NCBI RefSeq assembly: GCF_964355755.1
Contig: NC_092679.1
Location: forward strand, 3,906,001-3,970,000
DNA: 64,000 nucleotides
From: Antedon mediterranea
Taxonomy: Eukaryota; Echinodermata; Crinoidea; Comatulida; Antedonidae
Reading direction: 5' to 3'
Shown here: positions 18,201-61,000 of the stretch, one piece after another
Layout of the letters: every line of letters begins with the position of its first letter
How positions within the stretch are numbered: the stretch's first letter is position 1
Program-made: the position numbers and the translations under genes
The notes under the pieces: model-generated
What the model was told of the DNA's origin: nothing
The model's input: the letters and a program-made list of their open reading frames with translations, nothing else
Database searches by the model: none

Positions 18201-21200
18201 AAGTAGTTTAGTTTTACGAATGTCAAGCATTTTCAATAATGGTAACCGACAGAAAACGTATAAGGAGAACATTATCATTCCGAGAACCATCGTCTACACA
18301 TCCTAGAGGGGGAGCGAGCGAAGTATCTAGTATGGATAATTCTAAACCTTCGGAATAAGATATAACATTTTTGTTTTGCTACTTTACTGTACAGTAGGCC
18401 TATTCTTATTCTATCATCATTGTTTTAAATTCTGTCACATAAAGCTTGATTCCCACTAGGACGCAACGCAAGGACGTAAGTCGCAACGTAAAGCGTGGTT
18501 CTTAATTATAGTAGTAAAGCATGTTGAACAGATGAGTAATATGAATTAATACACAACCACCATTTATGCAGTCCTAGGGAAGTCTACAAATTCTGACGGT
18601 TATTGTCTACCGTATCTATCTATAGTTTTTGTGGATCTATTCAATCATTCAATCTTTTGTTTTGGAATCTCTGGTCCATAAAAGTAAAATTACGTATAAA
18701 TTAATTAAAAATTTAAGACTGTACTAATTACTAGTACTACTAATCTCAGCATGGCATTCCACCTGGAGAGCATCTTTGACTTATTAATTCTGACTACTAC
18801 TGTTAACTGAATTACATTTATGGTTATAACATTAGAACTTGTTGAAATACTAAAAACACATTTTTATTACCTTTATTATAATTAGGTTTACAGTAGCACT
18901 AAAGTTACATATGAGATAACAGCGCAGCATGAGAAGCATTTTAATCAAGAGTTATATGTATACGCTCCTCCTCGGGGGGTTTTCATGTCGCGCCGTTTGA
19001 AAAGGATTAGAATACTGTTATTTAACTGCGTACTTTAAGTCATCAGTTCTATAGTATTACAGTAGTACTATAGTTTGTTTACAAAAAAATAAACATTTGT
19101 ATGATTAATCATTATATTTGGTTTGTGGGTGGGTAGACCCATTGTGGGATATTTTACATGACAAATACTCTCATCCTCTGAATGTTTATTTGTAACAAAA
19201 ATAAGAGTTTTTGCTAATAAAAAGGCAGCAGCTATAAAAGCATATTACATTTGCCTGTAAGGTACTATTACTAGGTGCAAAAAAACAACCTTTACAGAAA
19301 CCTAGTCATCAGTACTAACATGTTTTTAATATTAAATAAATAATAAAAATTATTATATTTTTCCCTATAATGTATCAGTAAATTTGAAATTGTTTTTTTT
19401 TTTTTGCAGGCTGATCAACTTACAGAAGAACAAATAGCAGGTACGTCGTTTAAGATACCTTAGATGTCAGATCAGCTTCAGTTAATTGATGGATTTCACT
19501 TTTCAGCTACAAGAATTAATTGGGACTGATTAAATATAGTATTCTAAGAACTTTAATAAAATATGATTTATTTTAAAGTATTGCCATTTTACTGTGACCA
19601 TGCAGGGAATAATTTCGCACGTGTAGCATAGCAAAAAGCTATACAAAACAACCTTTTTGCTACAGATTTTTAAATTTGTGTAGCAAAAAATACAATACAA
19701 AACTATGTTTCTCGACTCAAAAATCAGTTTGATTAGCAATATTGCTGAACAAAATTAAAAAATGAAATTTTCCCCTGCCATGTATCTAACATTAGTATAC
19801 TGACTGTTGAGTGGTGTATGAATGAATAGTTTCAGGAAAGTAGTTATAAATAAATTAGTTAATGCAAATCAATAAAAAAACATATTATGAATTAATAATT
19901 AGCATGAATAATCTATTTTTAAATGTATCAATTCAATGTGGTGGTTACAAATTTGGCCACATGATTTTATTGGGAGAGTCTATAGAGCATAAGGTTGAGG
20001 GTATAGGCTTTGATAAATATATATTGCCTTTTAATTGTTATTGATTTTGCTTGCATCCAGTCACAAGAAATTGCTGGTTTTAAATTGCAATTTTTAAAAA
20101 TTGGTATTTGGTAGTTGGTATTTTAAAGTGGTATGATAAGTACTATTATTCTTCTGATATTACAGAATTTAAGGAGGCATTCTCCTTGTTCGACAAAGAT
20201 GGCGACGGCACAATCACAACAAAAGAACTTGGAACTGTGATGAGATCTTTGGGACAAAATCCAACGGAAGCAGAACTTCAGGATATGATCAATGAAGTAG
20301 ATGCTGATGGTATGACCATTGTGACTCAATTCTAATTTATCAGAATTCTATATTTTCCCATCCTGAGCCGTTGAAATCTTCTCAAGATTAAAACTCAATA
20401 AGTCATTTGACAATCTGACGCAAGGTGCAAGATAGCTGTTGTGATGCATGTAAAGTAAATTAAATGAAACGATGAATTGTCTATGTCAATGAGGATTACC
20501 CTTATTCCGAATATAAAAGAAATATTCCACTTATTTTAATCGTATTTGACAAGCCTTCAGTACATTGATTGAGTGCACGAGTTAGCTATTAGATAATTAC
20601 AACCCTTTCTCATATTTTCTCTCTTCTTTATGCATTTATTTGTTTCATTTGCTGTGTAACCATTTTCTTGACTTAAATTCATCATGATGTTAGAGTTGAT
20701 TATTTAATTTTCAACTAAAAATAAACTAAACAAACTTGAATAAAAATTGGATACAGTAGGCCTTGCAGTAAATTGGTGAAATGATTTTAATGTGGATTAG
20801 TCAATATTATTCCTATCCTATTATATAGGTTAGAAATTAGATAAATTAGCTGCAGTAATTCTATAAAATTGTCTAAGGAGTATTTTTTATTTATTTACTT
20901 GATTTTTTTACTTCAATACTTTGTGTTACAATGTTTATACGGACTCGTGGAAGAACACCTTTCTGGTGAACATGTTTTTTCCGTTGCAAAAATAAATATT
21001 TTATTATTATTTTCATGCGTGTTATTTATAGTTTTAATGTATTTTTAAGGCAATGGTACAATAGACTTTCCTGAATTTTTGACAATGATGGCGAGGAAAA
21101 TGAAGGATACAGACAGTGAGGAGGAGATCCGAGAAGCTTTTAGGGTGTTTGACAAAGACGGAAATGGATACATTAGGTAACTCAATATTTTGTTGTCATT

Positions 21201-58070: not shown

Positions 58071-61000
58071 ATGGTGAGTTTTTACCTTTTCAAATTTAGC
58101 CCTATTTATTATTTATAATTTTACTATATAACTGTGTTCTTATTTGGAGAAAACTTTCAGATATCGATCAGTTTACAAACTATAGGTTGATGATTTTAAC
58201 TATTATTGGAAAATTATTATTTTTTAAATGATAATTGATAACTGATTAATTTAACTGACTTGCGGAAAACTGGAATTCTACGAAGGAATATTTAGTCGCA
58301 TTGTACCAATTCGTCTACATGCAATCAAAATCAATTTACATAAAAGTAACATAGAAAGAGGACATGTTTTTGGGACCGTTTAATCAAACAGTTTATTTAG
58401 CCAATTAACAACAGTGTTTTAATGTATTATCGGAAATAGAAATATTGATAGTTGGTCCGCGCGTGTGCAGAAGGCAGGGCCAGGAAGAGAACCCGCGCAG
58501 AAGCTAATATTTCCAATGTGATGATCAGATGTCATGGAGACGCGTCCATCTCTATCCATCAATCTCATGTTATAAGTGCGCGAACAATTGCTGTATAACA
58601 AAATCGCACATTTTGCATATAGTTTTAGCTTTCTATTATATATTTTTTTCATTTTGATTTCCATATAACAATGTGTTATAAGGGCGTAAAGTGAAGGGAG
58701 ATGTCATTAATATAAATGGTCACAATGGAACAACTGTTGATTAATGTTATGGAATGTACAATCAGAATGCTTTAAGCACGGCGCACACTACAGCTTTCGG
58801 CGGAGCCAACTGGGCACGAGTAACACTTGGCTCACTAAAAAATTTGCCGCAAATTGTGATCGCGTTCTATCGGACGCACACCAAACGCCTTCAGTACGCG
58901 ATTTGCTGATTGGATAGTTACTTAATACGCTATACGGCACGCGCTGACATATTATAATAAATTAGAACATGTCATGCGCAGTGGAATTTTTTAGTGAGCT
59001 ATCTGCTTACGTTCGGCGCACACTTCTTGAGGAAAATGGCACGCGTACCAAAAAATATTAAACATGATAGATATTTTCCTCAGCGGCACGCGTGGCCGAT
59101 TCCTCACGAATTCCCCGGCGCACACTGTGAGCAAAGTGTTACTCGTGCCAGTTGGCTCAGCCGGAAGCTCTAGTGTGCGCCGGGCTTTATTGTCAAACTA
59201 ATAATGTTACGCTTACGTCTTTCTTTTGGGTCTCAGTGGGAACCATTGAGAGAAAATCGACAAATGTATGGGCGCGAGCACTTTTTGTTAACACAATATC
59301 TTCTTCTCCAATTATAGATAATATAGAATCATATTTTGTTTATAACCTTGAGATAAAGAATAAATTATATATTATAAAAAGTGTCGGTTTGAAACATTTA
59401 ATCGATTTGTATTAGTAAGGCTCTTTAAAATAATTTCTAATCTTCTATTCAGAAATTCAATTAATAATGGAATCTTATCAACAAAATAGGTGTTTTGTCA
59501 CAATTTACATTCGGGTTAATCGTCTTCAAGACGCCGAAATGGCGACGGGAAAAAATACGATTTTTGTTTCTATTGCACTAATAATATAATTGCAATTTAA
59601 TGTTTGAAGCGATTATAAATAAGAGACGTGGCAGTGACATTTAACTCGTCGTGCGTACACAAAACAGCTTCTTCGTGACGCGCGCGCGCACAAAGATTAT
59701 GATAATAATATTATAAAGATACTGCTTATACACGCGCGTATACACATTGATAATTGTGATACGGCGTTTATATACACATCGCTGATATTGTGTCATCATG
59801 CTTTCAATGCCCTGATTACATAAATAACTAAAATACACATACAGGTATATTATTAATAAGTCATTAAAATTTTGTCCAGGAACACTTGATGTCATGGTAT
59901 TTGTCTCTCTGCTGGTTCCATAGCATTCTGATTAATATCATACAGTTTTCATAACTGTCATTCATAATTCATATTTTTACAGGCCGATCAACTAACAGAA
60001 GAACAAATTGCTGGTGAGTGAATTAGCAAATTACATTTTTATGTTAATGAATTATGGTTGGCTAATTTAACGACTGCCGAAATCTATAAGCTGTCAATTG
60101 CATGAAACTAAATAACAAAACTTCATCTAGATGAAGACACGTAACGTAATTACTACAGACCAGATTTTCACTGCAATCGAATTAAACATGCACTTAATTA
60201 ATTACACATCCTTATAAAGAATATATTATTTTGTCATGTATTGATTTACCAGAAATATGGTCGTAGTTATAATCAATGTTCAATAATTATTCTCCAAGTT
60301 TATTTTTTCTTTTGATCTTCAATTTTTTCAATTGTTTAGAATTTAAGGAGGCATTCTCTTTATTCGACAAAGATGGCGACGGCACAATCACAACAAAAGA
60401 ACTTGGAACTGTGATGAGATCTTTGGGACAAAATCCAACGGAAGCAGAACTTCAGGATATGATCAATGAAGTAGATGCTGATGGTATGTTTACAGTTAAA
60501 TAGATAATAACGAAAATACATTGACATGATAATGGTGATCATGACACAGGGTGAGAAATGATAAAAATGACTGACAAATTGCACAAAAATGTTGGCAAAA
60601 CATTGAGGCATAAGTCTAAAATAGCATCTGAAATTGTATTTAAGTTACATCTCCAAATAGCCACACTACTTAATTGCATGGCAATAAATATAACCGAAAC
60701 CTTATATTATCAAATTAAAGTTGTATTACAGTACGTATAATTGTGTACAAGACACGTGTTACTACATTGGAACTGCATTCATTATTCATTTTCCTTTTAT
60801 TAAAGCTTCGATTTCATCAAAATGTGCTTAGAGATTACAAGCGATTGCTTCTAGCACTAATAATGTCACTTAGTCCATGACATTCTTCTTAACGTGTGGT
60901 GCCATATATCTACGTTAATCTTTAAAAAAACGTGGTCATTTTCCAAATGAACGTACGCGTGATGCGCATGCCCCTTGGTGGTAGATTGAAACAGTGAGGA

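What the first reader, a model, noticed from the sequence alone, without database searches (positions are those of the whole stretch)
20166..60483. Calmodulin exon 3 is nearly identical at the DNA level across four paralogues whose other exons have diverged
Exon 3 copies: 20166-20309 (A), 36789-36932 (B), 46135-46278 (C), 60340-60483 (D). By eye A and C differ at 2 of 144 bases, A and D at 2, A and B at 9. A 74-base core, starting at the ACAAAAGAACTTGG word in the second half of EF-hand I, is the same in all four. In contrast exon 4 of A and C differs at about 26 of 127 bases and exon 5 at about 24 of 116, mostly silent. Introns on both sides are unrelated. Protein constraint cannot explain identity at silent sites in one exon only. 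Exon-limited gene conversion (possibly cDNA-templated) or a second constraint on the exon 3 sequence, such as splicing control or RNA structure, would explain it.
Basis: seen in the sequence. Interest (0 to 1): 0.78.

Follow-up and report, generated by a model that had tools for sequence, protein, structure and literature searches.

The report
Calmodulin exons homogenised by gene conversion
Four neighbouring calmodulin genes in an animal-like genome have kept one exon almost letter-for-letter the same, most likely by copying it from one another, while the rest of each gene drifted apart; a fifth calmodulin gene elsewhere shows that the sequence itself is free to change.

Summary
Four head-to-tail calmodulin genes (A-D) lie in the window. 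Exon 3 differs at 2-11 of 144 bases in the six pairs, with silent differences at 0.07-0.26 of silent sites; exon 4 differs at 0.64-1.04.

A fifth calmodulin gene (E), 12.8 Mb away, encodes the same exon-3 peptide as A, C and D, yet differs from A-D at 0.63-0.73 of exon-3 silent sites, so exon 3 is not silently constrained. And exon 5 of D lies just outside the window: C and D differ there at 2 of 116 bases, while their exon 4 differs at 27 of 127. Exon 3 is not the only shared exon, and patch edges lie inside exons.

This is patchy interlocus gene conversion, limited to exons because the introns no longer match. A genomic template is more likely than cDNA, but that is inferred. Support is strong for A, C and D, weaker for B. 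The kind of process is known. Extra interest comes from a published abalone report: four calmodulin paralogues with 1 of 54 substitutions in exon 3 and differing introns; "gene conversion" does not occur in its text.

The parts
19410..19440 (+). Gene A exon 2
20166..20309 (+). Gene A exon 3 (converted exon)
21050..21176 (+). Gene A exon 4 (diverged)
23381..23496 (+). Gene A exon 5 (diverged)
26773..26801 (+). Gene A exon 6 with stop
32184..32226 (+). Gene B probable exon 2, 5' end uncertain
   Evidence: weak similarity to C exon 2, AG before and GTAAG after; boundaries inferred
36789..36932 (+). Gene B exon 3; exon positions 54-136 identical to A and D, both ends diverged
37516..37642 (+). Gene B exon 4
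37965..38080 (+). Gene B exon 5
38238..38266 (+). Gene B exon 6 with stop
45773..45803 (+). Gene C exon 2
46135..46278 (+). Gene C exon 3 (converted exon)
47077..47203 (+). Gene C exon 4 (diverged)
47345..47460 (+). Gene C exon 5; exon positions 20-116 identical to gene D exon 5 (the D copy is outside the window, L001 2777-2892)
49127..49155 (+). Gene C exon 6 with stop
59983..60013 (+). Gene D exon 2
60340..60483 (+). Gene D exon 3; exon positions 24-144 identical to gene A
63937..64000 (+). Gene D exon 4, part inside the window (continues to 64063 in L001)

Best explanation
The four tandem calmodulin genes are old duplicates whose introns no longer align and whose silent sites are mostly at or near saturation. 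Short patches of coding DNA, about 75-120 bp as now visible, have been copied between them by interlocus (ectopic) gene conversion. This happened in exon 3 across the array, and separately in exon 5 between C and D. Patches stop inside an exon or at its edges because homology ends at the introns. Shown: the patchwork, its significance for A-C, A-D and C-D, and the lack of silent constraint on exon 3 in gene E. Inferred: strand invasion and repair from a sister gene's genomic DNA as the route; that exon 3, the longest of the coding exons located, is the last exon still long and similar enough to be copied array-wide; and that purifying selection on the protein tolerates or favours these copies.
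For: Silent differences in exon 3 are 2.0-7.8 of about 30 within the array, against 19-22 of about 30 to gene E, whose exon-3 peptide is the same as that of A, C and D (Fisher P 5.5e-7 to 1.7e-3 over 12 comparisons). Exon 3 against E is not significantly less diverged than exons 4+5 (P 0.10, 0.36, 0.78, 0.41). C-D exon 5 differs at 2 of 116 and exon 4 at 27 of 127 (P 1.4e-6; silent sites alone P 9.7e-12). GENECONV-like permutation with five genes gives global P 5e-5 for A-D, 0.0025 for A-C and 0.0068 for C-D; none of the four pairs with E is significant. Patch edges lie inside exons: B exon 3 has nine differences from A, at positions 5-53 and 137-139, and an 83-base identical centre (within-exon shuffle P 0.0028 against A, 0.0066 against D; 74 bases, 0.0027, against C). 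The donor site after exon 3 is GTATG in 4 of 4 array genes against 2 of 23 other donors that I listed by eye (P 8.5e-4), suggesting that copying ran a few bases into the intron, which favours a genomic template.
Against: Gene B's share is weaker: global P 0.07-0.20 for its three array pairs in the five-gene test, although pairwise P is 0.013-0.029. In the four-gene test only A-D (0.035) and C-D (0.0002) are globally significant, and A-C is not (global P 0.996); exon 3 then has only 11 variable columns, so power is low. GC3 is not raised in exon 3 (0.33-0.42, against 0.36-0.52 in exon 4 of A-D). The per-exon trees are mostly unresolved and do not by themselves show the patchwork: no inner branch is starred, and only A with B in exon 4 (92/96) is drawn. 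The shared exons, 144 bp and less, are below the roughly 200 bp given for efficient conversion in yeast and rodents (PMC3924818, passages). No relatives were available to show within-species exceeding between-species similarity. The donor count uses related genes and hand-picked sites, and the within-exon shuffle treats all 144 bases as free to change.
Confidence: 0.93

Rival explanations
1. Exon 3 carries a second constraint (splicing control, RNA structure or a regulatory element) that freezes its silent sites.
For: An exon with the same number is reported nearly invariant among four abalone paralogues (PMC6171432).
Against: Gene E has the same exon-3 peptide as A, C and D and is free at exon-3 silent sites. 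The C-D exon 5 patch needs a different cause. RNA folding of the two exon-3 copies tested is unremarkable (z -1.27 for A, -0.30 for B; C and D not folded).
Confidence: 0.03
2. The conversion used a cDNA (spliced mRNA) as template, which also gives patches that stop at exon edges. This is a version of the best explanation with a different donor molecule.
For: Introns on both sides are unrelated. Patches end at or inside exon edges.
Against: C and D share exons 3 and 5 but not exon 4, which lies between them in a cDNA. The shared GTATG after exon 3 would not be in a spliced cDNA. None of the places matching exon 3 of A (8), exon 4 of A (2) or exon 5 of C (6) is an intronless copy (read); masked or more diverged copies could be missed.
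Confidence: 0.12
3. Assembly or polishing error copied one exon into all four genes.
For: The copies are short and nearly identical; raw reads were not available.
Against: Each copy differs from each other copy, with two amino-acid changes in B's exon 3, and has unrelated introns of 326 bases or more on both sides (measured for A, C and D, and for intron 3 of B). No N in the window. That exons starting far apart would not be cross-polished is inference.
Confidence: 0.02

Closest known systems
Interlocus gene conversion / concerted evolution between duplicates (review PMC3924818; mammalian gene pairs in PMC2720389; passages seen of both)
   Same: Patches of near-identity inside otherwise diverged paralogues, detected by GENECONV-type tests.
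   Different: In PMC2720389 the genomic-DNA hits span introns and exons, and GC is raised in the concerted introns and at the third codon position (significant for two of three gene pairs). Here only coding patches are shared, GC3 does not rise, and the homologous blocks are below 150 bp.
[quoted passage not shown]
   Same: Four paralogues with introns of differing sequence, a first exon that holds only the start codon, and one of 54 substitutions in exon 3. The authors call exon 3 highly conserved. That their exon 3 is the same stretch as exon 3 here is inferred from exon order, not checked on sequence.
   Different: Abalone has no intron in its fourth exon, whereas these genes carry an intron in that part, near codon 102. 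Whether the abalone genes are tandem is stated as unknown. 'Gene conversion' occurs 0 times in the paper's main text.

Membership tests
Interlocus gene conversion | A tract of unusual identity between paralogues whose flanks are diverged at silent sites | tested here: met
   exon 3 in all six array pairs; exon 5 in C-D
Interlocus gene conversion | Tract longer than expected from permuted polymorphic sites, corrected over pairs | tested here: met
   five genes: met for A-C, A-D, C-D (3 of 10 pairs); not met for the 3 array pairs with B or the 4 pairs with E. Four genes: met for A-D and C-D (2 of 6 pairs)
Interlocus gene conversion | Identity not explained by constraint on the sequence | tested here: met
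   gene E, same exon-3 peptide as A, C and D, silent divergence 0.63-0.73 to A-D
Interlocus gene conversion | Paralogues within a species more alike than orthologues between species | not testable with these tools
   no eukaryotic relatives are held
GC-biased gene conversion (common, not defining) | Raised GC3 in the converted tract | tested here: not met
   exon 3 GC3 0.33-0.42 in A-D; exon 4 0.36-0.52; exon 5 0.36-0.44
Canonical calmodulin | Near-identity to the canonical calmodulin protein over its four EF hands | tested here: met
   over exons 3-5 (130 residues) A, C, D and E differ from one another at 2-3 residues; B differs at 6-7.
cDNA-templated conversion | Tracts that run across exon junctions of the mRNA | tested here: not met
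   exon 4, between the shared exons 3 and 5 of C-D, is diverged

The most novel reading that the evidence does not exclude
Calmodulin exon 3 is a recurrent conversion hotspot in animals. In separate lineages (this species and abalone) multi-copy calmodulin genes keep re-copying the same 144-bp exon, although it is shorter than the usual minimum for efficient conversion, so that the N-lobe stays locked while the C-lobe exons drift.
Probability: 0.25. Interest if true: 0.65.

Novelty: new member of a known kind. Interest (0 to 1): 0.45.

Why it matters
It is a clean natural example, with an internal control gene, of conversion acting on homologous blocks under 150 bp, stopped by diverged introns, and working exon by exon. 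It warns that the history of such paralogues differs by exon. Together with the abalone report it makes a testable claim: the same exon is re-homogenised in separate lineages.

Tried and rejected
RNA-structure constraint: folding z-scores are ordinary (-1.27 and -0.30 for exon 3 of A and B; 0.92 for A exon 4; -0.08 for C exon 5; four exons folded). GC-biased conversion: no GC3 rise. Conserved introns: the two longest matches outside exons between genes (A 26217-26356 with C; B 35435-35607 with D) are palindromic interspersed repeats, 40 places scored for each; shorter matches of 21-71 bases were not followed up. Other calmodulin-like genes: E2 beside E, F at C10:16.701 Mb and G at C10:24.399 Mb are diverged in protein, so I did not use them as silent-site controls; G served only as a distant row in the trees, whose forks are mostly unresolved. 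Naming the organism failed: no COX1 match (control found it in 8 of 14 genomes) and no GFP match (control found it in none, so that means nothing). Literature: nine searches. I saw no report of calmodulin exon conversion in the listed part of those results; several listed only the top 15-30 of many papers, so this does not show that none exists. Papers: PMC6171432 seen as abstract, first of five parts of the text, passages, section 13 and the Discussion; PMC2720389 and PMC3924818 as passages only; the rest as search listings.

Full report
What is there. The window is C10:3906001-3970000 of a 354-Mb assembly in 18 contigs, eukaryotic by its spliced genes. It holds four calmodulin genes in head-to-tail order: A (exons located from 19410 to 26801), B (about 32.2 to 38.27 kb), C (45773 to 49155) and D (59983 to 65242 in window numbering, ending outside the window in L001). 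For A, C and D, exons 2-6 were located; for B, exons 3-6 are firm and exon 2 is probable. I did not locate the first exon, which in abalone calmodulin holds only the start codon (PMC6171432). A genome search with exon 3 DNA found eight places. Besides A-D, the closest is gene E on the other strand at C10:16.767 Mb; its exon 3-5 peptide differs from A, C and D at 2-3 of 130 residues.

The observation. Exon 3 differences are 9, 2, 2, 11, 8 and 4 of 144 for A-B, A-C, A-D, B-C, B-D and C-D. Silent differences (Nei-Gojobori) in exon 3 are 5.8, 2.0, 2.0, 7.8, 4.8 and 4.0 of about 30 sites. In exon 4 they are 15.0-24.0 of about 23, and in exon 5 14.5-21.0 of about 24, except C-D with 2.0. As fractions, exon 4 is 0.64-1.04 and exon 5, without C-D, 0.58-0.87: mostly at or near saturation.

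Constraint or conversion. Gene E separates the two. Its exon-3 peptide is identical to that of A, C and D, but it differs from A, B, C and D at 19, 22, 21 and 21 of about 30 silent sites. All 12 comparisons of an array pair with a pair involving E give P between 5.5e-7 and 1.7e-3. Exon 3 against E is not significantly slower than exons 4+5 against E (P 0.10, 0.36, 0.78 and 0.41 for A, B, C and D). The silent sites of exon 3 are therefore free to change in E, and are alike only inside the array.

A second patch. With D completed outside the window, C and D are alike in exon 5: 2 differences of 116, at positions 7 and 19, then 97 identical bases holding 24 columns that vary among A-D. Their exon 4, lying between the shared exons, differs at 27 of 127. 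No property peculiar to exon 3 can explain that.

Patch edges. A and D are identical from exon position 24 to 144. A and C are identical from 30 to 127. B is identical to A and D from 54 to 136, with nine differences from A in the 61 bases outside. Edges inside exons show short copied stretches rather than whole-exon replacement. The permutation test supports A-C, A-D and C-D after correction in the five-gene set, with global P 0.0025, 5e-5 and 0.0068. It does not reach global significance for B (A-B 0.20, B-C 0.07, B-D 0.14), and in the four-gene set only A-D (0.035) and C-D (0.0002) do; homogenised columns carry no information there. I count B as converted because its silent exon-3 distance to the array is well below its distance to E (P 7.3e-5, 6.6e-4 and 2.0e-5), but its patch looks the oldest or shortest. 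Per-exon trees are mostly unresolved: no branch is starred, and only A with B in exon 4 is drawn (92/96).

Template. The donor sequence after exon 3 is GTATG in all four array genes, against 2 of 23 other donors that I listed, and GTAGG in E. This suggests that copying reached a few bases into the intron, so from genomic DNA. It is a small, hand-made count on related genes. C-D sharing exons 3 and 5 but not 4 also argues against one cDNA-templated event. GC3 is not raised.

Known or new. Conversion between tandem duplicates is well known. The review PMC3924818 (passages) puts the efficient minimum near 200 bp in yeast and rodents while noting that shorter cases are not ruled out; here the matching blocks are 144 bp and less. 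The closest precedent I found is the Pacific abalone (PMC6171432; abstract, first part, passages, section 13 and Discussion): four calmodulin genes, different introns, 54 substitutions of which exon 2 has 13, the 5' half of exon 4 has 22, exon 5 has 11 and exon 3 has one. The authors remark on exon 3; the words 'gene conversion' do not occur. Abalone lacks the intron that here splits exons 4 and 5, so this window is not abalone. Whether the likeness is recurrence, chance or constraint needs the abalone sequences, which are not held here.

Limits. Parts of the genome may be masked, so the gene count is a lower bound. No raw reads or expression data were seen.

Noticed in passing
window 26217-26356 and 35435-35607: Palindromic interspersed repeats (140 and 173 bases) with high copy number: 3,958 and 485 first-look candidates, 40 scored each, the scored best matches at 87-92% and 95-98% identity, matching on both strands at the same places; probably MITE-like elements.
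   Followed up: partly
L004 about 4218-4364 (C10:16.701 Mb, - strand): A lone calmodulin-like exon 3 (77.6% peptide identity, 78% DNA identity over exon positions 24-144) with no recognisable exon 4 or 5 within the 9 kb fetched.
   Followed up: partly
L002 about 3292-4582 (C10:16.761-16.763 Mb): A calmodulin-like copy next to gene E with an in-frame insertion in the first EF hand and many replacements; not homogenised with its neighbour E by eye.
   Followed up: partly
window 43640-44419, - strand: Long open frames made of imperfect tandem repeats, probably simple repeat DNA rather than a gene.
   Followed up: no
window 36833-36835 (gene B exon 3): Three adjacent changed bases turn the ACA codon of EF-hand I into TGC (Thr to Cys), just outside the converted patch.
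   Followed up: no
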